The position numbers and the translations under genes were made by a program. The notes under the pieces were generated by a model. It was not told the origin of the DNA. It saw only the letters and a program-made list of their open reading frames with translations, and ran no database searches. Below are positions 1,915 through 64,000 of a DNA stretch of 64,000 bases, one piece after another. Numbering within the stretch: the first letter of the stretch is position 1; the number at the start of each line of letters is the position of its first letter. The DNA comes from Cloeon dipterum. Its lineage: Eukaryota; Arthropoda; Insecta; Ephemeroptera; Baetidae. The stretch lies in assembly GCF_949628265.1 (NCBI RefSeq), contig NC_088786.1, positions 40,321,681-40,385,680 on the forward strand, given 5' to 3'.

Positions 1915-2697
1915 TGCTTCTGCGTAGAGTCCTTGTATTAGAGAGTTGCGCGGAAGAGATATACGAACGCGCCTACGCCTCGCGCATCTCGGCCGTCCTA
2001 TCTTGCCCCATGTTAAAATGAGTTTGCGCCGGTGGCTCTGTGGCAGGTTTATTGAATGCCGCCCACCGTGAAATTGGTGTCAAACGAAAGAGCACGAGCT
2101 TAACTACGTTTAAAGTCGGAACCAAGCTTGCAAACCAAATGGTGTTCGAGAAATCCGCTTCGCAAAAACGCTATTTGGGCTGCAAGAGCTGCCCGCCAGC
2201 GCCACGACGGGGCCGCCGGCGAACGGAAGTAATGACGCTCCCACTACCACCAGACACCGGCGCGACGATTTCGCGCGATCTCATTGGTCGGCTCTCACAG
2301 CTTGCACTATCTTAAACTACTAAAGTGGGAGGCAGCCGACCAATGAGATCGCTTGAAATCGTCGCGCCGGTGTCTGCTGGTACTTCCGATCGCCGGCGGC
2401 ACCGTCGTGGCGCTGAACGCTGGAGCGTGCAGCCAAAATAGCGTTTTTGCGAAGCGGATTTCTCGAACACCATTTGGTTTGCAAGCTTGGTTCCGACTTT
2501 AAACGTAGTTTAACTCGTGCTCTTTCGTATGACACCAATTTCGCGGTGGGTGGCATTCAATAAAGCTACCACAGCCACCGGCGCAAACTCATTTTAACAT
2601 GGGGCAAGATAGGACGGCCGAGATGCGCGAGGCGTAGGCGCGTTCGTATATCTCTTCCGCGCAACTCTCTAATACATGGACTCTACTTCTGCGCTGT
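1915..2697. mobile_element. Foldback element with ~370-bp inverted arms
   Basis: The left arm (about 1915-2292) and right arm (about 2338-2697) are near-perfect reverse complements around a loop of about 45 bp. The arms are GC-richer than the surroundings and differ by scattered substitutions and small indels. No transposase frame is present, so this is a non-autonomous foldback or long-TIR element. Longer open frames inside it are by-products of the arms. I could not define a target duplication. Confidence 0.8.
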
Positions 2698-2845
2698 GTG
2701 ATTCTTCTCCCACCCTTATCAGATATAGGGGAAATAATCGGATTGATGTTTTGTCATTTTCAAGAAGTTGGATGAATAATCGCTCTTAGAAATTCTGAAG
2801 GCATTTTACAAATTACCTCTACTTATTATATGAATTTTAATCTTA

Positions 2846-3014
2846 AAGACCGTCTTTAACGAAGTTTCTTGAGCACACCAATCGATTCCTGAGGTTTGAA
2901 TTTGGGTAAAATGGATTTTTTCCGACAAAAAAACCAAGCGCGACGAAGAACGTTTTTCCCGCCTAAACAATTTGAACACATATGCGAGAACTGCGCATGC
3001 GTCAGAGCTGGCAC
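2846..3014. repeat. Half-copy of the lectin-locus palindromic element
   Basis: This matches one arm of the palindrome found repeatedly in the lectin region. It contains the CCCGCC-AAACAA segment and the GCGCATGCGT-AGAGCTGG core. It is cut at 3014 by the hAT-type insertion. The other arm is not recognisable after that insertion. Confidence 0.6.
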
Positions 3015-3409
3015 CAGGGTTCGCCAATTTTGCAATGCGCAAAAATGCACCACTGGTTTTTTTGCGCAAAAAACCGGCTAGAAAAAACCCACCAGTTTTG
3101 GGTTTTTCCGCATTTTTCCGAATTTATCACAAAAAATAGTCAATTTTCGCTCCAAATCAGTCTGATATTTCATAAAATTACGTTGAGAGTTAAAATTTTC
3201 TGTCTCTTGAAGGAACCCGTGGCTCTAATACTGATTTTGGTGATTTTGAAAAATCCCTATTTTTGGTCATCCATCATGAGAAATTTTTATTTTCCATAAG
3301 AATGCATGTGTTTCGGAAAAATGCGCAAAATTGCAGAAAAACCCGCAAAAAACAGTTTTTTGCGATGCAGTGGGTTTTTCCGGAAAAATGCGGGTTTTTG
3401 CGAACCCTG
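3015..3409. mobile_element. Non-autonomous hAT-type element with 8-bp TSD
   Basis: The ends are CAGGGTTCGC and its reverse complement GCGAACCCTG. The element is flanked on both sides by GCTGGCAC (3007-3014 and 3410-3417). An 8-bp duplication and CAGGG-type ends are typical of the hAT superfamily. The 395-bp body is rich in G/A-T runs with subterminal repeats of a GGGTTTTTCCG-type motif at both ends and has no coding capacity. It inserted into an older palindromic repeat. Confidence 0.85.
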
Positions 3410-3799
3410 GCTGGCACACGCTAACCACCGGCTGTTAGCGGCTTACGGGAATCCTCTCCTCCGCCACACCCTGCGTGCATGTCTCGTTCAAGTACCTGCT
3501 AGCCTTCCCTCGTAATTTCCGATGATGTCACGTACCAACAAGCGATTCTTGCGCCATTTATTTTGATTGTCAGTCCGATTCTTATTATTTTGGTTATTTA
3601 GAGTTAAAGACAGTTCTTAAACCGCATTAATTAAAAACCAAAAAGCTTTGTGTCGGATAAAGATTTTGTTTGAATTTGGTTTTTTTATATTAAGACTTAA
3701 ATATATAGCGTATATGAGGCATGTGCAAATAGAATTGGGAAATGCCATTCACTTACTGTGCGAACCAGAAAAGTCAGCGCTCAGCAATTCAACATTATC

Positions 3800-4662
3800 C
3801 ATAGTTTTTCGACATAATTTGCATTTCAATCTACCTTTATGTTCATTGGTACTCCTGGTGTTTTTTGGTAATTTTGAGCGTTGGATGGAAAGTTCAACGT
3901 TTGTTCAGCTCCGACAGGAAAACTAGGACCTGGCGTGAAGTCGACCGTCTGATATGGACAACCTAAAGGAAGCGTTCAATTTTAACATTTTTTAACGTAT
4001 TGAATGATTTACAGATTGCGCCAATGTCATTTTGGAATATTTTGTTTTTATATAAATTACGTTGAATAAAACATCGCAATGATTTACCTGGATTTTGTGG
4101 CTGAACAGAATTTTCCCTTAGCATATTTAAAAATTGATTAGTGTCAGGATTACCCTGATTTCCATCTTGCAGGTTTTGTTGAGGCTGCTCTTCTTCAACC
4201 TGACCCTGGTTCATTGCTGCAAATAGGAAAGGTAGCTCAGGTTTGTTTGCTGGACATATTTATTTTGTTTGCGTGCAGATTTCTTAAATTTTGCCAGGAT
4301 AAAAATCAAATTTCAAGAAATAGATATTTAATTTTTTAAACAGTCAATTGAAGATAATAAACTATTGAAATCAAAACACTTTGCTGTAAATTTTATATTA
4401 ATAAGCGCTTTTGATTGCCATTTCGAGTTTACTTTATCTGTCATTTCTAGACAATTGTAGAATATTCTTAATATTTTGTTCTCACTCTCATTCACCCAGG
4501 GTTCAGTACGACCGCCATTTTGATCACCTGACTGCAACTCGTGGACCTTGTTAGGGTTCTGCTGCGGATATTGGCCCCCTGCAAAATTTGAATTACAAAT
4601 GATAGACTCGCAAATCAAATGAGATAGATTTCTAAATTATTACCAAAACTGTGCTGGTCCAT
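3800..4662 (-). CDS. Gln/Asn/Pro-rich protein P2, 3' end unresolved
   Basis: Paralog of P1. The exons read as 4644-4662 (ATG at 4660-4662, MDQHSFG), 4513-4578, 4088-4216 and from 3962 down to about 3845. Phases are 1-1-1, as in P1. The product is rich in Gln, Asn, Pro and Gly, with segments such as EEEQPQQNLQDGNQGNP and the shared SNAQNYQ motif. The donor after the second exon (GTCGTA) is weak. I could not place a terminal exon like that of P1, so the 3' end of this model is uncertain and the gene may be damaged. Function unknown. Confidence 0.45.
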
Positions 4663-11054: not shown

Positions 11055-13594
11055 CTAATATAACCTGTAATTCATTCGATTTTGTAAGAACTGAAACCTA
11101 TCCAGTATCTCAACTCTTACAACGCCACTTGAGCGTAGTACATCGCCCAGTTCGTGCAATTCCGCTACGTTCAAGTTGCCTTGTCCTTGATGGACGTCAA
11201 GAAAAATCCAAAAGTCTCTCAATTCGGTCAATATCGAACGATTTCTTATCTGGTTTAAAAGTGACTCTTTGTCGCCCAGATCAAATTTTGAGGAAAAGAT
11301 ATCAATGTGTTCAAGAAGCGGCGCAAGAAAAATTCTGTCAAGACGTGGGGTTGTGCCAACCGAATCCCTGAAAGTTGAATAATAGAGTCAGTTTGATATT
11401 CCTTTGTTAAAAAATATATATCTTACCAGTCATACCACCAAAAACTTTTCAATTTTCCAAAAGAAGCGATCGGTTCATCAAAACTCACAAAGGAGTCGTA
11501 TATACGAAGGGATTCCAATTCATGGCAGTGTTCAAAGATATCATTGAACGTGATATTCAATTCTTCCTCTATAAACTCAAGGTGTAGATATTTCAATGGT
11601 CTTCCTACTCTGCGCAGGTTGCGCAGTAAACAGTCTCTTTCGCTCTGTATGTCCACAGTTTCCCCGGCAAAAATCTAAAATAATAACACTCGAGAATGAA
11701 TAACAGTTTCAAAACCATGCAAAATAATAATTACGTGTAGTTCTGTCAAAGGTGATGGTATCTGGTCGAGGAAGTCAGCATTCGATAGATTGACATGAGC
11801 TTGTCGAAGAGGTGTAGTAACGTTTGTCCTGTTCAAAGTTACGCCAATTTCTCTAGGAAAATTCTGTGCAGTATACTTTTGGTAATCAAACTTTGGGTAG
11901 AGCGTCTTCAGAATATTTTTCATGGAATGAATTGGTACATCGACCAAAATATTATTCGCCTGAATTGACTGTAAGTTTCGGCTTTCTCTACAGAAACGCA
12001 CAAATCCCGAAAATTGGATGTGGACACCGTTAATGTAGAGTTGAGTTAAATTTTCCATTTTCAAGAGCAAGTCAGTGGCAAGTGGCTCCAGCCGTACTCT
12101 GTCGAGCATTTCCCATTCGAGGTATGACATCCTTGGGTCCTGAATTTCGAGCTGTCGCAGGTTTGGAACAAAATCAACCAGGTATTGGAGGAACTTAAAA
12201 ACAATGGAAAAATTTAAAAAATTGAATTTTAGTAACAGAGCTCTGATAATTACCTCTTCCATCGAAACACGACCCTTAGAAATCTCTCCTGTTTCCCCAG
12301 GTGCCATTCTCCGTGGATTCCCGGGGGATCCTCCTAGAACGAGCGAGGGGATTCCCCCGAGAATTGGCGAACTCCTTAAACAAGTGAAATTTGCCCATTG
12401 ATGCGATGAAACACACTTATGTCGGTCTAATTGTTCATAAAATGATGACTTTAGATCCCACACCCCACTTTTTCACCCTAATTTGGGAAATAAATCGACT
12501 TAGAATGAGCGAGGGGGATCCCCAGAGAACGATCCCCTTCGATCTCATTCCACCTCATAAAAATCACTCAGAAATGTCATGATATGAAGCCAAAAGCGAA
12601 ATAACTTAATATTTATTGGTCTTGTCACGCATTTCAGTCATAAAACTTACTAATTAGTTAATTAGGAGAGGTTAATTAAAGCCATTTAGATCTGTTTTTT
12701 CAATTTGCCGCGCAACGTCTTCAGCCGGTTGAGCCGGTTCATTGGCAACACCGCTCCCCTCCACGCCGAACGGCTGATCGCAATCACCTCGCCCACAATC
12801 CCACAAACAATGATAGAAGCTGATCAGATGTTTTTATTTTTGATTTTTTCTTGTTATAATTGGTAAAAGATATTTCTCGTCTTGTGTAAACAAAACCGAG
12901 GATGATGCGGAATAAAGTGACGAGGTGGTGGAAGAGGAATAAAGCGCATATTCAAGGTTTTTCTGGTTTTTTCCTGTCCTTTTTCCTGAAACAAATTTCC
13001 TGTCCTGTTCCTATTCGAATATGTTGGCCTGTCTGCTCGGTCAGCTTATATTCCTGCTTTTTCTGATTTTATTTTTATGATTTTTAATTTTTATTTAATT
13101 AAATTCCATTAATTACAATATGGTCCTTGCACTTTATAAATATATATAGTAACAACACTGCTATCACAGGGATATCAGATTATATATTTATAATTATGAT
13201 TTTTGTGAAATGTTTTTGGACATCGTAAAACAGTATTTTAAGTCTATATTATCATATCTTCAAATTTATTTTTTGATATAAACGTGATTTATATAGACCA
13301 AGATTGAAATTGTTCTGAAACAAAATTCCCGTTATGTCCTGTTCCTGAAAATAATTTCTTGTCCTGCCGGAATGCCAGGGAAAAGCAGGAATTCCTGTTT
13401 CAATTTCTTGTATTCTTTGAATCCGGTCAACAGAGGAACATGCAGAGGATCATATGGTTAAAAAAGGAGCAGCCATATTAATTTTTAGAAAATTGCTATA
13501 TATTTGCGAAATAATTTATTTCGTGCATGAAAAGAAATATAAACACTATTTTCAAATTTTTATTTTATTTTATCAATATTCAGTCAAACTATTG

Positions 13595-14381
13595 CTAAAG
13601 TAACTGCACAGTTTGGTCCACACTATGCTGCATGATGTGGACCACTTCAAGGGAGAGGGCGAGGAGCTCAGTGATGAGTCTGTGCCGCTCAAGCGAGTAG
13701 ACGACGTCAATCCAGAGGATGTCACCGCAAGAAAGCTCGTGCAGCTCTGGAAATAGCGGCTGCAGCGTTTCCTCCTGATAGCAGAGGTAGAGCTTGTCCT
13801 CTGCTCGTCACCACCACACAGCAGCCACACAATCTCGCAGCTGGCTGGTAGCGGTGTTTGGAACAGGTGGTACGGTGCGAACAACAGCTCGAGCGAGAAG
13901 CAGTTCTGGGCAACGCTTTTGAGCAGAGATCCGCCCGCCACGCCCAATTGGAGCAGAAAAGAGGCTAGGCTAGGCGGAACTTTGCCGGCCAACGCTGGCT
14001 TGACGCTCGTGATGCCATCCACCAGGTCGTCAGCCTGCGCATCGAACGCGTCGAGGGCGATGATCTCGGCGCCGTTTGGGATGTAGGTGATCAAGGCCTG
14101 ACACAGCTGGTCGGGCAGGCTCTGCAGATCCATCGAGAACACCTTGCTGCTCGAGATGGCGTAGAAGAACGGTCAGCGTCAGCAGCAGCCCGAGGATCAA
14201 GGTGGCCACAATGCATCCAACCAGTACGAAGGCTGCGACCAGAAGACACACATCCAGGCCCAGCCAGTGCACAGAGATGTCAAGGCCATGGGTCACTGGG
14301 TCTTTCTTGCTCACGCGGTTGAACCCGATGTTGAGCGTCGAGAAGATCTTTCAGTAGAAGTAGTCCCGCAGGTTGAAGTAC
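13595..14381 (-). pseudogene. GPR89 fragment fused to an unknown coding-like segment (E copy 1)
   Basis: After a splice acceptor at 14382 the frame reads YFNL, then a stop codon, then KIFSTLNIGFNRVSKKDPVT, a hydrophobic segment and, after a 1-base frameshift near 14160, FFYAISSSK. This matches the C-terminal membrane region of GPR89/Golgi pH regulator in residue order, with two internal deletions relative to the family. It runs without a break into a second coding-like segment starting VFSMDLQSLPDQL. That segment has a further frameshift near 13805 and a terminal TAG at 13595-13597; I could not identify it. GPR89 proteins are multi-pass membrane proteins of the ER/Golgi. This copy cannot encode one. 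It looks like host sequence captured by E. Confidence 0.7.
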
Positions 14382-14774
14382 CTAAAATCAAGCCATTAAT
14401 GAAGAGAACACGTCAAAATGAGGGTCTTAAAATGACTAAAAAGAAATAATTGCACGTGGATGAAGTATAAGAAAAATAAAATCTAAATATATAAATGCCG
14501 GATCCTTTTTCTTACATTCTGAGGTTAAAAACAAACTGCCGTTTTAATATTTTCCTTCGAAAGAGTTGCCAGATATGAAGTAGATAGATTGTTATATTTA
14601 CTGAGCATAAAAACAACGTTAAAAATATTATTTCAGATATTGAGAATGATTAGAAGGTGCAATTGTGTTTGATATCTGAAAAAACTTTTTAATTTATTTT
14701 CCAGGCCTTTTGCATCTGCTTCTTGTGAGCAGTTCTCTGCAAATTTGGATGTCGCCATTTTTTCATTGATATTT

Positions 14775-16570
14775 TAGGTGACAATAATTATATTGCTTGT
14801 TAATAGATAGTGAAATTCCAAATTCAAAGCTCGAAAATGAAGGCGTTCCCAACTTTTCGGCATGTCAAAAATACCCGGAAATTGAATTCTATAATTGAAA
14901 GGTAGACTTAACTCTTGACTAGGTTGAGATATCACCTTGAAATTTTCACTGACCAACCTAGTTTTCGATCCCGAAAATCTTTTGCATTTCTAAAAAATCG
15001 CAGGTCAAAGGTCAAGGTCACCTTTCGTGACCTTCTTTGAAAATTCAAAACTATAGCATGATAGTCCTCTTCGATTTTTTTGGGTTAAAGACTGAAATGT
15101 AGCCTGTAAAATTTTGCACAAGCACACCAAGTTTCATAGATTCAATCGCAATAGTTTTTCTGCAATTCGAATTAAATAAATAAAAACCGGCTTAACGCCG
15201 CTCGGCCACGGCTGTCCTGTCAGCAGCGAGTTCGCCTCTTTTTCTTAGAGTATATTCATATATATATTTCGCATTTGCTTAGAACCACCAGGGTAGACCT
15301 ATGAAGGTCGAAATCGACCTTCAGGGCCTGTCCCTGACGTGACCCTGACATCAAAAAATTCGAAAATTTCCAATTTCATCGATTTTGGTGTCCTTTAATA
15401 GGTTTTCACCTCCGTAGAGCTCAAATATAAAGCAGAAACTACCGAATGACATTCCTTAAACCGGTTCTTTAATAATTGTGATAGCTATTAATCCTGGCGT
15501 GATGTCACAAAATTATTAGAATTTTGAAATCTTTTATTTATGAATAAATACTTGTTTTGTACACATGAAGTTCATATTTCCTGTTGAAACTAGATAATCT
15601 TATTTTTACAATGTAAAAAATAATGACTATAAAATGCAATAACAATTAGGCTACTGTTACAAATTAAAACTTTTTGTTCCCTAATTTTTTAAATACTCTT
15701 TGTTATTGGAATCAAATTTTTTTGCATTGCAACAACATCGTTAGTTTTCAGCACGAAATATAAACTTCAGGTCTGTATTTCTTCTTAAATTAAAGATTTC
15801 AAAATTTTAATAGTGTTTTGACATCACGCCAAGATTAATAGCTACCACAATTATATAAGGACCGGTTTCAGGAATGTCACTTGGTAGTTTCTGCTTTATA
15901 TGTGAGCTCTGCATTGGGGAAAACCAACAAAAAGACACCAAGATCGATGAAATTGGGAATTTTCGAATTTTTTGATGTCAGGGTCACGTCAGGGACAGGC
16001 CCTAAAGGTCGATTTCGACCTTCATAGGTCCACCTTAGGCCTCCTTGGTGTTTGTAAGCAAATTAAATGCGAAAAAATATATACTTTATGAGAGAGAGAG
16101 AGGCGAACTCGCTGCCCAAAGGCGATTATTATGCGAGCTCAAGCGGCCTCGAGCCGGTTTTTTAACATCCAATTCGAATTGCAGCAAAACAATCGCCGAA
16201 ACAATAAAACTTGTAATGTAGTGCTTGTGCAGAATTTCAGGTGCTAAATTTCAGTCTTGAACCCCACAAAAAATTGAAGGGGGAAATCTATCCTTAATTT
16301 TGAATTTCCGAAAAAAGGTCGCAAAAGGAGACCTTGACCTTCGACCTACCATTTTTTTTTTGCAAATTGAAAAGTTGTTCAGAATCGAATACTAGATTGG
16401 GCAGTGAAAATTTCAAGGTGATAACATAACGCAGTAAAGAGTTACAGTTTAGAATTTGATTTTGGGGGAATTTTAAAATACTGAAATAAATAGGGAATTC
16501 CCGAACTTCAAACTTGGAATTTATCCATTTAGGAAGAAGTACTTTTAGCAAATATAATTAATTGTCACCT
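14775..16570. mobile_element. Nested long-TIR element inside E copy 1
   Basis: The termini AGGTGACAATAATTATAT (from 14775) and its near reverse complement (to 16570) begin arms of roughly 800 bp. The arms include the paired AAGGTCAAGGTCACC-type and GGTCGAAATCGACC-type blocks at about 15295-15400 and 15925-16035. The arms have diverged from each other. There is no coding frame. Half-copies are recognisable at about 8640-8800 and 61195-61540. Confidence 0.7.
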
Positions 16571-18061
16571 AACAATTTCAACTTTCAAAACAAAAAGTTG
16601 CGAGAAATCGTCCTCCAAATTCCCGGAGAACTGCTCTCAATCAAAATTAGTTTTTCTTGATGATGGGTTATTTTTCTAAGATTTCAAATATTTTTAACGT
16701 TCATAACGCAAAATATTTTGGTTTAATCATGCTCAGATCTTATTGAATTTTAAACTTTTAAATTTCAAATCATTTTTTAATTTTCGCAGAAAATAATTCA
16801 ATCTAGCAATTTTTGCAACCTGCTCTTTGACTGTCAAATATTGTCATCTCATTATTAATAACAAGGCTTAAATTAAATAAGGGGCAACAACAAAATACGA
16901 AAAATGGAATTCCAAAAAGAAAAAATATTAAAATATATCAGAGGGCATACTTGTCTTGCGCCCTTCAGGCTGGTTTATCTCAAACTCACCTCCGCTTGCA
17001 CGAAAGACCTCTCTGTGATCCAAAGAACTGCAGCGATTTCATATGTTCCTCTCCAACCCATATCCCATCATCAAGCTCTTGGGTGAACAGTACGCTTTTA
17101 ATGTTCTAATGAAGCTGCCCAGCTGTTCTGTGACAAAATTAAAAGCTTTAATTTATTTTTCATGATTTATAGCAGAATTTTTCGAGACTCACACTTTTCG
17201 CCAAACTCACATTACCCGCTTGGATATTGATTCTTCCCATCAGAGCGAGAAGTATGTGAGTGATAGGAAAAGCGTGAGTCATCCCATCAATTTAAAGCAA
17301 TGATAATTGGAAAATAGTAAGTTACTACATAATCAATTCGTATAATATGTATGTACTCGTAAAAATGAAATGGATAAAATCGCACCTTGCGTGGATGTTG
17401 AACAGCTGCGTGTAGTCCGAACGATACTTTGGCACCTAATAAAGGTTTAAGGACGAAGGCCGATACGCTTTTCCAAGATAAATTAGCAGAAAATCAACAG
17501 AATTCACGACAAACATAAACACCCGACCGGCGAGCTCGCCATTTGTTATGCTCCGTCGCGAACAGGTGATGAGCGGTGTTGCCACGCATGCCCGGCAGAA
17601 ACTTGGCGCGAAAGTTTAGCCGGCTGATAATGATGAAGTTTATTCGGCCGCCGAACGCATTCGGCAGTGAGAGGGTTAATTTTATCAATTAATCATGACA
17701 TGAAGAGTTGTCTGGAGGCAAATTTAATGTAAATATCTGGATTTTTTCGTGGTGGAAAGTTGTGGCTGGGTCCACCGCGAGGTGGATCCTCCTAGAATGA
17801 TCTCTCTTCAATTTTCGCTCTTTATACCCACTTTTATCGTCATTTTCGGTATCCAAGTTACAAATAGAATAGCTCTAAGCAATATTAATTAACTTCGCGT
17901 GACTTTTACGTTAGAAAATTCAACTTCTAAAACGGTGGACGCATCCCCCGGGATTCCCCCGGTGGATCCACGGAGAATGGCACCTGGGGATCATTTTTGC
18001 TTGCGAGGTGAATTTCAAGAAATAATAAGTTTCAATTTGAAGTTGAAATTTAAATTTTCAG

Positions 18062-20360
18062 AGGGAGATAATCACCACTCCACCGCCATTGTGCATCGCG
18101 ACCTGTCCCACTGGTAACTGCACTCGAAACGTAAAAAGATATTAATTTAAACTGTACACAAAATGAGAAAACATGGAATTCAAAATAGGCCTCGCTTTTT
18201 GACTCAACTGGAACTGAACTGAATGGTATAAAACAGGTTTAAAATCAATATCAAATATTTTACCAAGTCTTCAAAGACTTTTTCTCGTATGGAAACTGGT
18301 ACGACGGGTGCGGTCGCAGCATTTTGACCTACACAAAAACCCCGGTAAATTTAAATTAATCAATTATCGATCCTCCTAAATTACAGTCCTTTCCTATAGT
18401 CAAACTGGTCCACTGCCCGTGACAATTGCTGCAAAATCGGTCTGACCCTTACCTCGATGGAGACGGCAGGAAAATTAAGCTGCTTTTCAAAAATCGTCTC
18501 AAGTATTATTATTTTTTTTCTGATCTTACCGAGATTATATAAATTTGGCCTCAAGAATTTTCTCCGGCGACTTTAGGTGACTTCTGGATTTCTGGAACGG
18601 ATCTGGGATGCGATTCAAACTTCCGTTGGTGCTCTCTTAACCGCGGATTTGTTGACGCTGAGCTCAAGTGGAAGCCAGGACACCCTCAAGCAGGTTTACA
18701 TTGCGTCTATCTCGAAGTCAGGAACGCATCCGTGCTGTTGGTCACCGCGAATTGCACGGAGGAAAAAGATTTTTTGTGCGAGATGCGCAAGAAAAACACC
18801 GTCCAAAGGGCCATGCAGACAGAATGCGCTGAAACTTGGGATATTACACCTGGTTTGAACTTTTTTAGGTGGTGGAGGGTTGGAAATTAATTCATTTTCT
18901 CGTCTAGAGCAAATTGACATGCTCTTGCAAGCGAGCCAGTTTCTTACGGCAAATATTTCTATTAATCTGAAGGTTCGTTATTCTATAACTGTTAAAGAGT
19001 GTCTTTGACGAAGTTTCTGAGCACAGCAAACGATTCTTGAGGGTCGAATTAGGTAAAGTGGATATTTTTTCCGACCAAAACGTCGAGCGCGACGTGCGAA
19101 CCGTTTTTTTCCCGCCAAAACAATATGAATGTGAGAAGTGCGCATGCGTGAGAGCTGGTTTGAGCATTTGCAGAGAGACCACCTGTACGAATGACTTTTT
19201 TGTCACATCCAGCCAGCTCTGACGCATGCGCACTTCTCGCATTTAGGTGCATATTGTTTTGGCGGGAAAAAAGTTCACACGTCGCCCTGTATTTTTCGGT
19301 CGGAAAAAGCATCCACTGTACCTAATTCGACCCTCAGGAATCGATTTGTGTGCTCAGTAACTTCGTCAAAGATGGCCTTTAAGCTTTATATGCAACATCT
19401 TTCATTTTTACAGTGCTTTTTGAAATGCATTGGAGTTGAAGTTGGATTGGTAAAGTGTATTCAATCTTTTGTAGGGCTGGGAGTTTTTCAGTAATTTAAA
19501 ATATTCAGTCTGATTTGCCCCGAAACACTGTTTAAATTTTTATTCTTACTTTCATTTTTATATTTTAAGTTCGACTACAATGCATTGGTTAGCATTGCAA
19601 TGCTCCGCCAGATAGAATTCGTATCTCAAGAAGATCCTGTAAAACTGCAGCAAGGATTTATTGCTTACGACGAGTGCAAAGATATAAGTAATAATTATAT
19701 TAATTATTTAAAAATCAATCCTATATGTTTGTATTTCAAAGAATATGACGATGAGTGCGTGACTGCCCACGAGACTTACAGATGTGGCCAGGAAAAGGCG
19801 CCAACTATAGTCTCTGACATAATCAAATTAAACTTTGACAATGGAACATACGTTAGAACCTATATAAGATTTTTAGATTTTCCGAAATTCTTGAAATAAT
19901 TCCATGTACAGCTTTTGCCTCCGACGCCGTGTGTTCCGTTGCGCAACTTTTGTTGGATGTCGAATTCTACTCCTTGCGAATTAAATGTATATATAAATTT
20001 ATGTATAAATATTTATAATAATTTTTTCGATACAGCAAACGGCCAGAGATTTGCTGTTCAACTCTCCAAAAAAATCTGGTAATATTTTCATGAATCTTAA
20101 TTAACGTCTTGCGTTTACATTTTTTAATAGACAATTATGGATTCCTGAAAACATTGCCGAATGATAACAAAACGTATTACGTCGGAAATTACGATAAAGC
20201 TGGAGGGATAGTAAACGTTTTTATTAATATAATTGTCAAACCTCCAGCATTTCTATATTCTAGAATCCGATTGAAGCGTACAAAATATGCTGTGAACGCG
20301 GGTTCAAATTGTACGAGCCTTCGAGCATTGCGCAGATGAAACTGACCAATCAAATAACCG
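18062..20360 (+). pseudogene. Lectin-like gene fragment in M, 13 exons, both ends missing
   Basis: The exons are 18062-18130, 18189-18225, 18277-18344, 18400-18502, 18577-18852, 18908-18972, 19414-19449, 19570-19687, 19742-19851, 19912-19986, 20036-20078, 20131-20210 and 20264-20360. They correspond one to one to exons 13-25 of L1, with the same phases and intact splice sites. The third CTLD is complete, with WISGT, a WKPGHP motif and FLCE. The signal peptide, first two CTLDs and last coding exon are absent, so it is a fragment despite the open frame. It is closest to L3: for the exon at 19570-19687 I count three differences in 118 bases. Both also carry a palindromic element in the intron after the 18908-18972 exon equivalent. 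Confidence 0.8.
18991..19383. mobile_element. Palindromic element of the lectin-locus family (in M)
   Basis: A complete copy. The outer arms carry GTCTTTGACGAAGTTTCTGAG and its complement, and each arm contains a CGATTCTTGAGGGTCGAATTA-type segment. The inner arms hold the CCCGCCAAAACAATATGAAT and GCGCATGCGTGAGAGCTGG blocks. The unit is about 390 bp, non-coding and MITE-like. The same element sits in the same intron of L3 at the right edge. Confidence 0.8.
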
Positions 20361-20386
20361 GTAAAAATTTCCCTTTCTTCATCTAA

Positions 20387-20652
20387 AATCCGTCTTTTGA
20401 CGGAGTTTCTGAGCCCACCAATCGATTCCTGAGGGTCGAATTAGGTGAAGTGGATCTTTTTTACAACCAAAACGCGCGAACTTTTTTCCCGCCAAAACAA
20501 TAAGAGCGTATTTACGAGAAGTGCGCATGCGTGAGAGCTGGTTCGAGCACTTGCAGAGAGACCGCCTGTACGAATGACTTCTTTGTCAGATCCAGCCAGC
20601 TCTCACGCATGCGCAGTGCTCGTATTTACGTTAATATTGTTTTGGCGGGATC
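20387..20652. mobile_element. Truncated palindromic element at the M/E border
   Basis: Same family as the copy at 18991-19383. It lies after the exon at 20264-20360, in the same intron as the copies in L1, L2 and L3. It stops just after TTTGGCGGGA where E copy 2 begins. The rest of its second arm is not found on the far side of either E copy. Confidence 0.75.
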
Positions 20653-21952
20653 CCCCAGGTGCCATTCTCCGTGGATTCCCGGGGGATCCTCCTAGAACGA
20701 GCGAGGGGATTCCCCCGAGAATTGGCGAACTCCTTAAACAAGTGAAATTTGCCCATTGATGCGATGAAACACACTTATGTCGGTCTAATTGTTCATAAAA
20801 TGATGACTTTAGATCCCACACCCCACTTTTTCACCCTAATTTGGGAAATAAATCGACTTAGAATGAGCGAGGGGGATCCCCAGAGAACGATCCCCTTCGA
20901 TCTCATTCCACCTCATAAAAATCACTCAGAAATGTCATGATATGAAGCCAAAAGCGAAATAACTTAATATTTATTGGTCTTGTCACGCATTTCAGTCATA
21001 AAACTTACTAATTAGTTAATTAGGAGAGGTTAATTAAAGCCATTTAGATCTGTTTTTTCAATTTGCCGCGCAACGTCTTCAGCCGGTTGAGCCGGTTCAT
21101 TGGCAACACCGCTCCCCTCCACGCCGAACGGCTGATCGCAATCACCTCGCCCACAATCCCACAAACAATGATAGAAGCTGATCAGATGTTTTTATTTTTG
21201 ATTTTTTCTTGTTATAATTGGTAAAAGATATTTCTCGTCTTGTGTAAACAAAACCGAGGATGATGCGGAATAAAGTGACGAGGTGGTGGAAGAGGAATAA
21301 AGCGCATATTCAAGGTTTTTCTGGTTTTTTCCTGTCCTTTTTCCTGAAACAAATTTCCTGTCCTGTTCCTATTCGAATATGTTGGCCTGTCTGCTCGGTC
21401 AGCTTATATTCCTGCTTTTTCTGATTTTATTTTTATGATTTTTAATTTTTATTTAATTAAATTCCATTAATTACAATATGGTCCTTGCACTTTATAAATA
21501 TATATAGTAACAACACTGCTATCACAGGGATATCAGATTATATATTTATAATTATGATTTTTGTGAAATGTTTTTGGACATCGTAAAACAGTATTTTAAG
21601 TCTATATTATCATATCTTCAAATTTATTTTTTGATATAAACGTGATTTATATAGACCAAGATTGAAATTGTTCTGAAACAAAATTCCCGTTATGTCCTGT
21701 TCCTGAAAATAATTTCTTGTCCTGCCGGAATGCCAGGGAAAAGCAGGAATTCCTGTTTCAATTTCTTGTATTCTTTGAATCCGGTCAACAGAGGAACATG
21801 CAGAGGATCATATGGTTAAAAAAGGAGCAGCCATATTAATTTTTAGAAAATTGCTATATATTTGCGAAATAATTTATTTCGTGCATGAAAAGAAATATAA
21901 ACACTATTTTCAAATTTTTATTTTATTTTATCAATATTCAGTCAAACTATTG

Positions 21953-22739
21953 CTAAAGTAACTGCACAGTTTGGTCCACACTATGCTGCATGATGTGGAC
22001 CACTTCAAGGGAGAGGGCGAGGAGCTCAGTGATGAGTCTGTGCCGCTCAAGCGAGTAGACGACGTCAATCCAGAGGATGTCACCGCAAGAAAGCTCGTGC
22101 AGCTCTGGAAATAGCGGCTGCAGCGTTTCCTCCTGATAGCAGAGGTAGAGCTTGTCCTCTGCTCGTCACCACCACACAGCAGCCACACAATCTCGCAGCT
22201 GGCTGGTAGCGGTGTTTGGAACAGGTGGTACGGTGCGAACAACAGCTCGAGCGAGAAGCAGTTCTGGGCAACGCTTTTGAGCAGAGATCCGCCCGCCACG
22301 CCCAATTGGAGCAGAAAAGAGGCTAGGCTAGGCGGAACTTTGCCGGCCAACGCTGGCTTGACGCTCGTGATGCCATCCACCAGGTCGTCAGCCTGCGCAT
22401 CGAACGCGTCGAGGGCGATGATCTCGGCGCCGTTTGGGATGTAGGTGATCAAGGCCTGACACAGCTGGTCGGGCAGGCTCTGCAGATCCATCGAGAACAC
22501 CTTGCTGCTCGAGATGGCGTAGAAGAACGGTCAGCGTCAGCAGCAGCCCGAGGATCAAGGTGGCCACAATGCATCCAACCAGTACGAAGGCTGCGACCAG
22601 AAGACACACATCCAGGCCCAGCCAGTGCACAGAGATGTCAAGGCCATGGGTCACTGGGTCTTTCTTGCTCACGCGGTTGAACCCGATGTTGAGCGTCGAG
22701 AAGATCTTTCAGTAGAAGTAGTCCCGCAGGTTGAAGTAC
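21953..22739 (-). pseudogene. GPR89 fragment fused to an unknown segment (E copy 2)
   Basis: Identical to the segment in copy 1, with the same internal stop, the same 1-base frameshift before the FFYAISSSK motif and the same later frameshift. The shared lesions show that capture and decay happened before the two copies separated. Confidence 0.7.
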
Positions 22740-23132
22740 CTAAAATCAAGCCATTAATGAAGAGAACACGTCAAAATGAGGGTCTTAAAATGACTAAAAA
22801 GAAATAATTGCACGTGGATGAAGTATAAGAAAAATAAAATCTAAATATATAAATGCCGGATCCTTTTTCTTACATTCTGAGGTTAAAAACAAACTGCCGT
22901 TTTAATATTTTCCTTCGAAAGAGTTGCCAGATATGAAGTAGATAGATTGTTATATTTACTGAGCATAAAAACAACGTTAAAAATATTATTTCAGATATTG
23001 AGAATGATTAGAAGGTGCAATTGTGTTTGATATCTGAAAAAACTTTTTAATTTATTTTCCAGGCCTTTTGCATCTGCTTCTTGTGAGCAGTTCTCTGCAA
23101 ATTTGGATGTCGCCATTTTTTCATTGATATTT

Positions 23133-24928
23133 TAGGTGACAATAATTATATTGCTTGTTAATAGATAGTGAAATTCCAAATTCAAAGCTCGAAAATGAAG
23201 GCGTTCCCAACTTTTCGGCATGTCAAAAATACCCGGAAATTGAATTCTATAATTGAAAGGTAGACTTAACTCTTGACTAGGTTGAGATATCACCTTGAAA
23301 TTTTCACTGACCAACCTAGTTTTCGATCCCGAAAATCTTTTGCATTTCTAAAAAATCGCAGGTCAAAGGTCAAGGTCACCTTTCGTGACCTTCTTTGAAA
23401 ATTCAAAACTATAGCATGATAGTCCTCTTCGATTTTTTTGGGTTAAAGACTGAAATGTAGCCTGTAAAATTTTGCACAAGCACACCAAGTTTCATAGATT
23501 CAATCGCAATAGTTTTTCTGCAATTCGAATTAAATAAATAAAAACCGGCTTAACGCCGCTCGGCCACGGCTGTCCTGTCAGCAGCGAGTTCGCCTCTTTT
23601 TCTTAGAGTATATTCATATATATATTTCGCATTTGCTTAGAACCACCAGGGTAGACCTATGAAGGTCGAAATCGACCTTCAGGGCCTGTCCCTGACGTGA
23701 CCCTGACATCAAAAAATTCGAAAATTTCCAATTTCATCGATTTTGGTGTCCTTTAATAGGTTTTCACCTCCGTAGAGCTCAAATATAAAGCAGAAACTAC
23801 CGAATGACATTCCTTAAACCGGTTCTTTAATAATTGTGATAGCTATTAATCCTGGCGTGATGTCACAAAATTATTAGAATTTTGAAATCTTTTATTTATG
23901 AATAAATACTTGTTTTGTACACATGAAGTTCATATTTCCTGTTGAAACTAGATAATCTTATTTTTACAATGTAAAAAATAATGACTATAAAATGCAATAA
24001 CAATTAGGCTACTGTTACAAATTAAAACTTTTTGTTCCCTAATTTTTTAAATACTCTTTGTTATTGGAATCAAATTTTTTTGCATTGCAACAACATCGTT
24101 AGTTTTCAGCACGAAATATAAACTTCAGGTCTGTATTTCTTCTTAAATTAAAGATTTCAAAATTTTAATAGTGTTTTGACATCACGCCAAGATTAATAGC
24201 TACCACAATTATATAAGGACCGGTTTCAGGAATGTCACTTGGTAGTTTCTGCTTTATATGTGAGCTCTGCATTGGGGAAAACCAACAAAAAGACACCAAG
24301 ATCGATGAAATTGGGAATTTTCGAATTTTTTGATGTCAGGGTCACGTCAGGGACAGGCCCTAAAGGTCGATTTCGACCTTCATAGGTCCACCTTAGGCCT
24401 CCTTGGTGTTTGTAAGCAAATTAAATGCGAAAAAATATATACTTTATGAGAGAGAGAGAGGCGAACTCGCTGCCCAAAGGCGATTATTATGCGAGCTCAA
24501 GCGGCCTCGAGCCGGTTTTTTAACATCCAATTCGAATTGCAGCAAAACAATCGCCGAAACAATAAAACTTGTAATGTAGTGCTTGTGCAGAATTTCAGGT
24601 GCTAAATTTCAGTCTTGAACCCCACAAAAAATTGAAGGGGGAAATCTATCCTTAATTTTGAATTTCCGAAAAAAGGTCGCAAAAGGAGACCTTGACCTTC
24701 GACCTACCATTTTTTTTTTGCAAATTGAAAAGTTGTTCAGAATCGAATACTAGATTGGGCAGTGAAAATTTCAAGGTGATAACATAACGCAGTAAAGAGT
24801 TACAGTTTAGAATTTGATTTTGGGGGAATTTTAAAATACTGAAATAAATAGGGAATTCCCGAACTTCAAACTTGGAATTTATCCATTTAGGAAGAAGTAC
24901 TTTTAGCAAATATAATTAATTGTCACCT
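23133..24928. mobile_element. Nested long-TIR element inside E copy 2
   Basis: Copy of the element at 14775-16570, at the fixed 8,358-bp offset, so it was already inside E when E was duplicated. Confidence 0.7.
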
Positions 24929-27034
24929 AACAATTTCAACTTTCAAAACAAAAAGTTGCGAGAAATCGTCCTCCAAATTCCCGGAGAACTGCTCTCAATC
25001 AAAATTAGTTTTTCTTGATGATGGGTTATTTTTCTAAGATTTCAAATATTTTTAACGTTCATAACGCAAAATATTTTGGTTTAATCATGCTCAGATCTTA
25101 TTGAATTTTAAACTTTTAAATTTCAAATCATTTTTTAATTTTCGCAGAAAATAATTCAATCTAGCAATTTTTGCAACCTGCTCTTTGACTGTCAAATATT
25201 GTCATCTCATTATTAATAACAAGGCTTAAATTAAATAAGGGGCAACAACAAAATACGAAAAATGGAATTCCAAAAAGAAAAAATATTAAAATATATCAGA
25301 GGGCATACTTGTCTTGCGCCCTTCAGGCTGGTTTATCTCAAACTCACCTCCGCTTGCACGAAAGACCTCTCTGTGATCCAAAGAACTGCAGCGATTTCAT
25401 ATGTTCCTCTCCAACCCATATCCCATCATCAAGCTCTTGGGTGAACAGTACGCTTTTAATGTTCTAATGAAGCTGCCCAGCTGTTCTGTGACAAAATTAA
25501 AAGCTTTAATTTATTTTTCATGATTTATAGCAGAATTTTTCGAGACTCACACTTTTCGCCAAACTCACATTACCCGCTTGGATATTGATTCTTCCCATCA
25601 GAGCGAGAAGTATGTGAGTGATAGGAAAAGCGTGAGTCATCCCATCAATTTAAAGCAATGATAATTGGAAAATAGTAAGTTACTACATAATCAATTCGTA
25701 TAATATGTATGTACTCGTAAAAATGAAATGGATAAAATCGCACCTTGCGTGGATGTTGAACAGCTGCGTGTAGTCCGAACGATACTTTGGCACCTAATAA
25801 AGGTTTAAGGACGAAGGCCGATACGCTTTTCCAAGATAAATTAGCAGAAAATCAACAGAATTCACGACAAACATAAACACCCGACCGGCGAGCTCGCCAT
25901 TTGTTATGCTCCGTCGCGAACAGGTGATGAGCGGTGTTGCCACGCATGCCCGGCAGAAACTTGGCGCGAAAGTTTAGCCGGCTGATAATGATGAAGTTTA
26001 TTCGGCCGCCGAACGCATTCGGCAGTGAGAGGGTTAATTTTATCAATTAATCATGACATGAAGAGTTGTCTGGAGGCAAATTTAATGTAAATATCTGGAT
26101 TTTTTCGTGGTGGAAAGTTGTGGCTGGGTCCACCGCGAGGTGGATCCTCCTAGAATGATCTCTCTTCAATTTTCGCTCTTTATACCCACTTTTATCGTCA
26201 TTTTCGGTATCCAAGTTACAAATAGAATAGCTCTAAGCAATATTAATTAACTTCGCGTGACTTTTACGTTAGAAAATTCAACTTCTAAAACGGTGGACGC
26301 ATCCCCCGGGATTCCCCCGGTGGATCCACGGAGAATGGCACCTGGGGTTTACCCTTCAAACTGAAGATGCTAGCAAAATGTCTGGTTGTGAAACTTTCAG
26401 TCGTCCTGTGCTGGTCAAGATAGGGAAGAGCAGCCCAAACTTGGTCTGCTCCAATTTCTTCTATCCTTTCCATTGCTCTCTCAAACACTAGTTTGCGCAT
26501 GGGAGGAGCTAAAATTTGATAAATATTAACATAAATCTCAAACAAAATGCTATTTTATAATACAAATTTTCTTCTTAATAAGCTCTTCGTAGCCTCCAAT
26601 ATTTTCAACGATTGTGTTGATCGCCGACTCTTGCAGGGAAAGAAGAGCAGGGATGAATCTCAGGGAGTCGTGTCCACTCATCTGGAAAAATAAATAGCAT
26701 TAGGTTTGCCAGCTGATTGAATCAGATAATTCACGAATATATAAACCAATATTTTTGGTTTGCTTATAATTTACGCTCCTTCCAAATTCTGTGTGCTTAA
26801 TCATTTCCATACAAACACAAATCGATGGGATCATTGGGTCAAAGGAGCTGCAGGGTTTGTGAAAATTTTAATGTTTAGCTTTCAGTCGTTTGAATCGAGC
26901 ACGGTGTGATTGAAGTCGTGAAGATTTTGATTGATTCTGCCTTTATTTGACGGTATGTGACCCCAACTGAACGTTTGCAGTAATCTCTGAAGCTTAATTG
27001 AGTTAATTACATCAAGATAAATTAAAATCTCACC

Positions 27035-62044: not shown

Positions 62045-63697
62045 CTATGGTTCTTCACACAAAAAAATATAAAAGTATCCGGATACAGGGGTGTAGTTTT
62101 GGGGGTAGATGAATCGGTTGAAGAGCATTGTGCTGGAGTATTTATATCTTTGCAGCAGGAAGTTGTTTTTGTTCACTCCCAGCATCATTTCAGCGCAAGG
62201 GTACCGGAAGGCGGAAGGCCCAGTGTTGAAGAAAGAGTCGGGCAGAATTTGGCGGCTGCGACACCACATCTCGTGCGTCTGGTTGATCGAATCCGTGTCG
62301 CCGGTCGGCACGGTTAAACTCGTTGATCCTGTTTTCAAATCGTTTTAATTCCTCGAGACCGTCTTTGACGAAGTTTCTGAGCCCACAAATCGATTCCTGA
62401 GGGTCGAATTAGGTAAATTGGAAATTTGACCAAACAAAAAAGTCCAGCGCTGCGTGCAAACTTTTTTTTCCCACCAAAACAATATGAATGCCAGAACTAT
62501 ACGCATGCATCAGAGCTGGCTGGATGTAACAAGAAGTCATTCGTACAGGTGGTCTCTCTGCAAAAGTGCTCAAAACCAGCGCACCTCTCGCAAATACGTT
62601 CATATTGTTTTGGCGGGAAAAAAAGGTTCGCACGTCTCGCTGCACTTTTTCGAGGGAAAAAACTTGCACTTTACCTAATTCAACCCTCAGGAAGCGATTG
62701 GTGTGCTCAGAAACGTCGTCAAAGACGCTCTTTAAATGAAGAAATGGATTTTTTTACCGGTTATTTGACTGGTCAGTTTCATCTGCGCAATGCTCGAAGG
62801 CTCGTACAATTTGAACCCGCGCTCACAACATATTTTGTACACTTCAATTGGATTCTAGAATATAGAAATGCTGGAAGTTTGACAAATATGATAAAAGAAT
62901 AAACGTGTTTACAATCTTTCCACCCTTATCGACATTTCCGACGTAATACGTCCTGTTCAACATTGTTTTCAGGAATCCAAATTTGTCTTTTCAAAAATAT
63001 AAACGCAAGACTTTAATCAAGATTAATGAAAAATTACCAGATAATTGTGGAGAATCGTACAGCAAATCTCTGGCCGTTTGCTGTATCGAAAAAATTATTA
63101 TACATATTTGTACATAAATTTATAGATACATTTAATTCGCACGGAGTAGAATTTGACATCCAACAAAAGTTGCGCAACGGAACACACGGCGTCGGAGGCA
63201 AAAGCTGTATGGAATTATTTAAAGAATTTCTGAAAAACCAAAAATCTTAATATAGGATCTAACGAATGTTCCATTGTCAAAGTTTAATTTGATTATGTCG
63301 GAGACTATACTTGGCGCCTTTTCCTGGCCACATCTGTATGTCTCGTGGGCAGTCACGCACTCATCGTCATATTCTTTAAAATAAATACATAGGATTGATT
63401 TTTAAAAAGTATAAATGATTGTTACTTATATCTTTGCACTCGTCGTAAGCAACAAATCCTTGCTGCAGTTTTACAGGATCCTCTTGAGATACGAATTCTA
63501 TCTGGCGGAGCATTGCAATGCTAACCAATGCATTGTAGTCGAACTTTAATTATAAAAATGAAAGTGAGAATTAAAATTTAAACAGTGCTTCGGGGCAAAT
63601 CAGACTGAATTTATTAAGTTACTGAAAAATTCCCAGCCCTAGAAATGATTGAATACTTTACCAATCCGACTTCAACTCCAATGCATTTCAAAAAGCA
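62045..63697 (-). CDS. L3: lectin-family gene, C-terminal part; continues past the right edge
   Basis: Exons 63662-63697, 63426-63543, 63264-63373, 63130-63204, 63038-63080, 62913-62986, 62758-62854 and 62045-62328 correspond to exons 19-26 of L1 with the same phases, and end with FLCEEP and a stop at 62045. Earlier exons should lie beyond 64,000, because a palindromic element fills the rest of the window. The donor after 63264-63373 is GTTAGA, the same as in M and different from L1. Its exons are the closest match to those in M. Expected product: a secreted modular lectin-like protein. Confidence 0.7.
62355..62737. mobile_element. Palindromic element in the last intron of L3
   Basis: Full-length lectin-locus palindrome, same position and family as in L1, L2 and M. 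Confidence 0.8.
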
Positions 63698-63737
63698 CTG
63701 TAAATAAAAGATTATGCATAAAGGTCAAATAAAAAAA

Positions 63738-64000
63738 GGTTAAAGACCGTTTTTGACGAAGCTTTAGAGCACTACGATCGTTTCTTGAGGGTCGAATTAG
63801 GTAAAGTGGATCAATTTTTCCAACCGAAAAGTGCAGCGCGACGTGCGAACTTTTTCCCGCCAAAACAAAATGAATGCGAGAAGTGCGCATGCGTGAGAGC
63901 TGGATGGACGTGACATAATTCGTACAGGGGGTCTCTCTGCAAATGCTCAAACTAGCTCTCACGCGTGCACATTACTTGCATTTAGGTGCATATTGTTTTG
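63738..64000. mobile_element. Palindromic element cut by the window edge
   Basis: Left part of a lectin-locus palindrome, in the intron that also carries one in M (18991-19383). It ends at the window edge inside the second arm. Confidence 0.75.

What the first reader, a model, noticed from the sequence alone, without database searches (positions are those of the whole stretch)
12295..26347. E-M-E array: two 5.7-kb TIR elements carrying a lectin-gene block into an LRR gene
Two E copies in the same orientation flank a 2.66-kb block of foreign gene sequence, and the whole array sits inside one exon. The outer flanks of the array match each other (TTT/TTT). The inner flanks also match each other (ATC at the end of copy 1, ATC before copy 2). 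The LRR frame is restored if the array and a 2-bp duplication are removed. That is what a eukaryotic composite transposon would leave: two elements mobilising the DNA between them. Alternatives are integration of an E-plus-M circle by recombination with an E already in the LRR gene, transfer of M by recombination between dispersed E copies, or a false assembly join.
Basis: partly seen in the sequence, partly recalled or inferred. Interest (0 to 1): 0.85.

Follow-up and report, generated by a model that had tools for sequence, protein, structure and literature searches.

The report
Twin transposons carrying a lectin-gene fragment
Two identical copies of a jumping DNA element, with a piece of a lectin gene caught between them, sit in another gene as what looks like one insertion; this may be a rare joint jump of the kind worked out in maize.

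Summary
The array is in the assembly as described. Two E copies (12295-17989, 20653-26347) are identical over 5,695 bp and in the same orientation, around M (17990-20652).

E insertions make a 2-bp target duplication in 7 of 7 other copies found with both ends. Neither array copy has its own (TT/AT and TC/TT), but the array as a whole does (TT/TT). Removing the array and 2 bp reopens the host frame; of 40 scored matches to the joined site, 39 run through it and one is the array's own flank. So the pair looks like one insertion event.

M is an internal piece of a C-type-lectin gene, cut at both ends. The only near-full-length relative found lies about 42 kb from M, inverted (8.6% substitutions).

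TC before E2 is foreign to the broken MITE: 1 of 1,007 such sites genome-wide, the array itself. That argues against two ordinary E insertions flanking M.

Best reading: outer ends of two Es were used together (alternative transposition), giving a composite insertion or macrotransposon as in maize Ac. Recombination of an E+M circle with a solo E, or misassembly, cannot be excluded without reads.

The parts
12293..12294 (.). left copy of the 2-bp target duplication (TT) of the whole array
   Evidence: array 2-bp match true; the 3 fetched host relatives align best with 2 bp removed
12295..17989 (+). E copy 1, TIR element, 5,695 bp, no transposase family recognised
   Evidence: Pfam scan of 10 ORFs of E found no match over a cut-off
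14726..16654 (.). palindromic repeat nested in E1 (about 1.9 kb, many copies elsewhere at about 75%)
   Evidence: (E nt about 2432-4360)
17990..20652 (+). M: 2,663-bp internal fragment of a C-type-lectin gene, cut in an exon on the left and in a MITE on the right
17990..17992 (.). ATC at the E1/M junction; the corresponding codon in the nearest relative is CTC
18992..19390 (.). complete palindromic MITE inside M, also present at the same place in the relative
20391..20650 (.). truncated MITE at the right end of M
20650..20652 (.). ATC at the M/E2 junction; TC is not native to the MITE family
20653..26347 (+). E copy 2, identical to E1 over 5,695 bp
26348..26349 (.). right copy of the 2-bp target duplication (TT)
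11675..12294 (-). downstream part (gene on the minus strand) of the interrupted host gene, member of a large gene family
26348..26700 (-). upstream part of the interrupted host gene; the interrupted exon continues here
62469..64000 (-). nearest relative of M (continues beyond the window to C1:40386810), colinear with M, 8.6% substitutions

Best explanation
The array is one insertion made by the E transposase using the left end of one E and the right end of another (alternative transposition), so that E-M-E entered a host-gene exon as a unit with a single 2-bp duplication. Shown: anatomy, outer duplication, uninterrupted site in relatives, no duplication for either E alone, identity of the two Es. 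Inferred: E sat in an exon of a lectin gene closely related to the one about 42 kb from M; during or after replication two E ends, on sister chromatids or neighbouring copies, were used together; the attached flank M was copied or carried along, broke in a MITE, and was joined to a few bases outside the left end of the other E. The product is a composite insertion, which is also a potential macrotransposon.
For: 2-bp duplication in 7 of 7 other two-ended copies, absent for E1 (TT/AT) and E2 (TC/TT), present for the array. Host site: 39 of 40 scored matches cross the join; all 18 that cover the whole query span one base more than my 3-bp-removed query, and the best fit is at 2 bp removed in the 3 relatives fetched. 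E1 = E2 over 5,695 bp, while the next closest copy differs by 18 substitutions and 7 gaps. M starts exactly at E1's end and ends 2-3 bases before E2, at bases foreign to the MITE. These are the parts described for maize composite insertions: outer duplication, transposon copies outside, copied flanking DNA inside, a join between (PMC4270019, abstract and passages).
Against: No donor E insertion in the lectin gene was found in this assembly; M's closest relative found is 8.6% diverged and has no E at the matching place. The inner ATC/ATC match would need a 3-bp duplication at the donor, seen in 0 of 7 copies. ATC before CCCC also occurs inside E's own ends, so its source is ambiguous. Only 2-3 bp of the second donor flank would have been kept. 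No transposase gene was recognised in E. Outer duplication and uninterrupted relatives are also expected under recombination with a solo E.
Confidence: 0.45

Rival explanations
1. Plain macrotransposon: two independent E insertions flanked M at the donor, and E-M-E then moved as one piece into the host gene.
For: Outer 2-bp duplication and lack of individual ones are exactly as expected; E1's right flank AT fits a target one base different from the relative.
Against: E2's left flank TC is not native to the MITE: 0 of 39 sites in 20 fetched loci and only the array itself among 1,007 sites genome-wide. Two independent Es would also have to be identical over 5,695 bp.
Confidence: 0.2
2. Recombination: a solo E stood in the host gene (TT/TT) and recombined with an extrachromosomal circle or ectopic copy carrying E+M, giving E-M-E.
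For: Also predicts the outer TT/TT and the lack of individual duplications. An E+M circle made from one E would give matching inner flanks such as ATC/ATC.
Against: Needs two unlinked E copies to be identical, while the next copy differs by 18 substitutions and 7 gaps. The inner flanks do not form an in-register 2-bp duplication. M is colinear with its relative, not permuted, so the circle must have closed at the E edge.
Confidence: 0.2
3. Misassembly: reads from a solo-E host allele and from another place holding E-M or M-E were joined inside the identical E sequence.
For: E1 and E2 are identical over 5.7 kb, the kind of repeat that invites false joins; no second E-M-E and no closer M were found.
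Against: The M/E2 junction occurs at one place in the assembly, the array, so reads with that junction should exist somewhere. The E1/M junction was looked for only in the 62 fetched loci (0 found), not genome-wide by itself.
Confidence: 0.15

Closest known systems
Composite insertions by reversed-ends transposition and re-replication, maize Ac/fAc (Zhang et al. 2014, PMC4270019)
   Same: Two transposon copies outside, copied flanking DNA inside, one outer target duplication, an internal join; target on the same chromosome near the donor (13,392 bp to 1.7 Mb in the seven maize candidates; here M's relative lies 36 kb from the array's edge, on the assumption that it marks the donor locus).
   Different: Maize Ac makes 8-bp duplications and the events were caught with their twins; here an unassigned element with 2-bp duplications, an event seen only in its result, donor not seen, and only 2-3 bp of one flank kept.
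Ac macrotransposons (Sharma and Peterson 2022, PMC9910405; Huang and Dooner 2008, cited there)
   Same: A segment bounded by two elements moves as one unit and leaves one duplication; composite insertions are reported to excise and reinsert.
   Different: No second copy of E-M-E was found here, and excision could not be tested.
Drosophila P-element hybrid element insertion (mentioned in PMC3744419)
   Same: Ends of two separate elements used together in an animal.
   Different: The passages read speak of flanking rearrangements; its products were not compared with this array.
CMC (Chapaev-Mirage-CACTA) DNA transposons
   Same: 2-bp duplications are reported for some CMC elements (PMC6004678 passage).
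   Different: E ends in CCCC...GGGG, not the CAC...GTG of those elements, and no transposase was recognised, so membership is unproven.

Membership tests
Composite insertion (alternative transposition) | Target duplication at the outer ends of the pair only | tested here: met
   array TT/TT; E1 TT/AT; E2 TC/TT; 7 of 7 other two-ended copies have 2 bp
Composite insertion (alternative transposition) | DNA between the elements is a copy of the donor element's flank, adjoining the inner ends | tested here: inconclusive
   M adjoins E1 exactly and is colinear with a lectin gene, but no donor with E was found
Composite insertion (alternative transposition) | Internal join with short or no shared sequence, or by homologous recombination | tested here: inconclusive
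   At the M/E2 join one A is shared with the MITE; TC is foreign
Composite insertion (alternative transposition) | Reciprocal deletion or duplication product | not testable with these tools
   needs sister or other haplotypes
Plain macrotransposon from two ordinary insertions | Each inner flank is a normal insertion site of the element | tested here: not met
   Not met on the E2 side: TC is foreign to the MITE, 0 of 39 sites, 1 of 1,007, the array itself. The E1 side is compatible. A rare mutation of the MITE is not ruled out.
CMC transposon superfamily | 2-bp target duplication, as in some members | tested here: met
   7 of 7 other two-ended copies
CMC transposon superfamily | Superfamily transposase | tested here: inconclusive
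   10 E ORFs scanned, no Pfam match over cut-off; E may be non-autonomous
CMC transposon superfamily | CAC...GTG termini (CACTA branch) | tested here: not met
   termini CCCC...GGGG

The most novel reading that the evidence does not exclude
A natural animal case of a composite insertion by alternative transposition in an element family with 2-bp target duplications: a single E next to a lectin gene copied itself and 2.7 kb of gene sequence into another multigene family in one event, and left a unit that could move again.
Probability: 0.35. Interest if true: 0.6.

Novelty: new member of a known kind. Interest (0 to 1): 0.42.

Why it matters
In the papers I saw, alternative transposition is worked out in maize Ac/Ds and Drosophila P. 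A base-resolved natural case in another element family, probably in an arthropod, would suggest that other cut-and-paste elements can carry gene pieces between multigene families. It is also a ready test case, since its possible intermediates (donor with one E, uninterrupted host site, solo-E host allele) give different predictions in population long-read data.

Tried and rejected
Rejected: a 3-bp target duplication for the family (0 of 7); M as a circular permutation of its nearest relative (it is colinear); a complete lectin gene inside M (M starts in an exon and stops in a MITE). Not found: a second E-M-E or a closer M (one search scored 40 of 1,673 candidates, one search scored 40 of 570).

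Sample of duplications: the 26 ends are 9 pairs (E1, E2 and the 7 other copies) and 8 single ends. Two singles were in L012 and L017; the other six and extensions of those two were fetched as 8 regions and gave no credible second end, only hits with 7 of 22 mismatches in L047, L048 and L051. All 8 singles were left out of the count of 7.

Codons at the M left break were looked at in 10 of 96 related exons listed, one of them the relative itself; too varied to decide whether ATC is native. Transposase search in 10 E ORFs gave nothing over a cut-off, one sub-threshold VirC2 hit at E 0.29; ORFs of L009-L017 were only listed, not scanned. Host organism: a nematode splice-leader family and a nematode receptor family gave no match, but no control genome matched either, so these say nothing; 94 cuticle-domain matches point to an arthropod (my inference; that the domain is typical of arthropods is recalled).

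Literature: PMC4270019 (abstract, outline, passages), PMC9910405, PMC12312487, PMC3744419 and PMC6004678 (passages only); PMC9339288 is not held; all others were seen as search listings only. I saw no report of such an array in an animal in the listings of searches, which cover open-licence papers only. Listed papers on Drosophila Galileo (PMC2775673), Anopheles P elements (PMC1562414), Teratorn (PMC10175614) and root-knot nematode Tm1 (PMC3169594) were not opened, so this is weak.

Full report
The window is G000:C1:40321681-40385680 of an unnamed 190-Mb genome in 10 contigs. 94 matches to the Chitin_bind_4 cuticle domain suggest an arthropod; this is inference.

Observation. E1 (12295-17989) and E2 (20653-26347) are identical over 5,695 bp and in the same orientation. 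Both end in an imperfect TIR of about 37-39 nt that starts CCCCAGGTGCCATTCTCCGTGG. This end occurs 26 times genome-wide (16 forward, 10 reverse) at up to 2 mismatches, against 0 for the reversed-pattern control. Between the copies lies M, 2,663 bp.

Target duplication. The 26 ends form 9 pairs (E1, E2 and 7 others) and 8 single ends. All 7 other pairs have a 2-bp direct duplication (TA, CA, GA, TA, CA, TC, AA) and none a 3-bp one. The 8 single ends were left out; regions fetched for them gave no credible partner. A looser 15-nt search listed 9 more ends that were not examined. In the array, E1 has TT on the left and AT on the right, E2 has TC on the left and TT on the right, and the array as a whole has TT/TT. 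So neither E shows an insertion of its own, while the pair does.

Host site. A query of the two host flanks joined (typed with 3 bases removed) gave 107 candidates, of which 40 were scored; one is the array's own right flank, and 39 run through the join. The 18 that cover all 214 query bases each span 215 bases, so one base more belongs there, that is, 2 bp are duplicated. In the 3 relatives fetched, alignment is best with exactly 2 bp removed (L022 also). The host frame is open across the 2-bp join. The closest relatives lie at C1:40.02-40.29 Mb, others at 38.3-38.8 Mb.

Age. E1 and E2 do not differ. The next closest copy, C1:42021005-42026705, differs from E1 by 18 substitutions and 7 gaps (36 gap positions). 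Other family members match in pieces at about 75-95%.

M and its source. Apart from itself, M has one near-full-length match, C1:40384149-40386810 on the minus strand (window 62469 and on), colinear from M base 2 to 2661 (one search scored 40 of 1,673 candidates). It lies about 42 kb from M and 36 kb from the array's edge. Over 2,585 aligned positions 223 differ (8.6%); with gaps, BLAST gives 86% identity. Both share the same MITE insertions. M's left end lies in a lectin exon: the relative reads CTC|ATTTTTG, M reads ATC|ATTTTTG. M's right end lies in the middle of a palindromic MITE. So M is an internal fragment of a lectin gene. No closer source was found, so the true donor was probably another haplotype or is lost (inference).

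The inner junction. In M the MITE reads GGCGGG, then ATC, then E2. In 20 fetched MITE loci, 38 of 39 such sites read AAA and 1 reads AAC. Genome-wide, TATTGTTTTGGCGGGA occurs 1,007 times (517 forward, 490 reverse), and only the array itself continues with TC. So TC next to E2 is very unlikely to be MITE sequence, and E2 does not look like an ordinary insertion into this MITE. ATC also follows E1. One reading is that ATC is a donor duplication copied to both sides of a single E; against this, the family duplicates 2 bp, not 3. Another is that ATC before CCCC was copied from E's own ends, where ATCCCCC also occurs. ATC makes up 1.5% of trinucleotides in the window, so a chance match is about 1 in 65. 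The source of ATC is left open; that E2's left edge is abnormal is well supported.

Mechanism. The outer duplication belongs to the pair, so either the transposase used the left end of one E with the right end of another (alternative transposition), or a solo E in the host gene later recombined with DNA carrying E and M. The identity of the two Es and the abnormal E2 edge favour products of one E over two independent insertions. In maize, alternative transposition of Ac with re-replication gives composite insertions: transposon copies outside, pieces of flanking DNA inside, an outer duplication, and internal joins with 0, 3 or 4 bp of shared sequence or by homologous recombination (PMC4270019, abstract and passages). 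Composite insertions are reported to excise and reinsert as macrotransposons (PMC9910405, passages). Drosophila P elements undergo related hybrid element insertion (PMC3744419, passages), and Arabidopsis VANDAL21 elements are suspected of alternative transposition (PMC12312487, passages). The array works like these; membership is only partly tested, because no donor or reciprocal product is available.

What E is. No Pfam family was found over its cut-off in 10 E ORFs. E holds a nested palindromic repeat of about 1.9 kb with many diverged copies elsewhere. It is probably non-autonomous (inference). A 2-bp duplication is reported for some CMC elements (PMC6004678, passage), but E's CCCC...GGGG ends differ from their CAC...GTG, so I leave it unassigned.

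Limits. No reads were available, so misassembly remains possible, although the assembly holds the M/E2 junction at one place only; the E1/M junction was searched by itself only in the 62 fetched loci (0 found). Sequence-similarity searches of the genome score only the best candidates, so their counts are lower bounds.

Noticed in passing
window 18992-19390 and 20391-20650; genome-wide: A palindromic MITE of about 390 nt with 1,007 exact sites of a 16-nt core motif (517 forward, 490 reverse). The 100 or so places listed, all on C1, lie at 1.0-2.6 Mb, 6.6 Mb and 34.4-36.5 Mb; the listing is truncated.
   Followed up: partly
window 14726-16654 and 23084-25012: A palindromic repeat of about 1.9 kb nested in each E, with tens of copies elsewhere at about 75% identity on both strands.
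   Followed up: no
G000:C1:40307834-40313288 (L015): A related E-family element with its own 2-bp duplication (TC) about 21 kb left of the array.
   Followed up: partly
G000:C4:33.58-33.82 Mb: A dense run of lectin-exon relatives; more lie elsewhere on C4 and on C1, C2, C3 and C5.
   Followed up: no
G000:C1 about 40.3870-40.3877 Mb (L018), in the relative of M: An intron-like stretch rich in CCAGGGTTAA/GGTTATTCC-type repeats.
   Followed up: no
G000:C3:1957624-1963391 and C2:1425484-1431256: Two older E copies of almost the same structure (same gaps against E1) on different chromosomes with different target duplications (CA and GA).
   Followed up: no
G000: C1:1320577, C1:39064630, C1:39064783, C1:39065082, C2:2962709, C4:19432299, C4:34348358, C4:34357466, C5:25733160: Nine further 15-nt E-like ends, three of them within 0.5 kb of each other on C1, not examined.
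   Followed up: no
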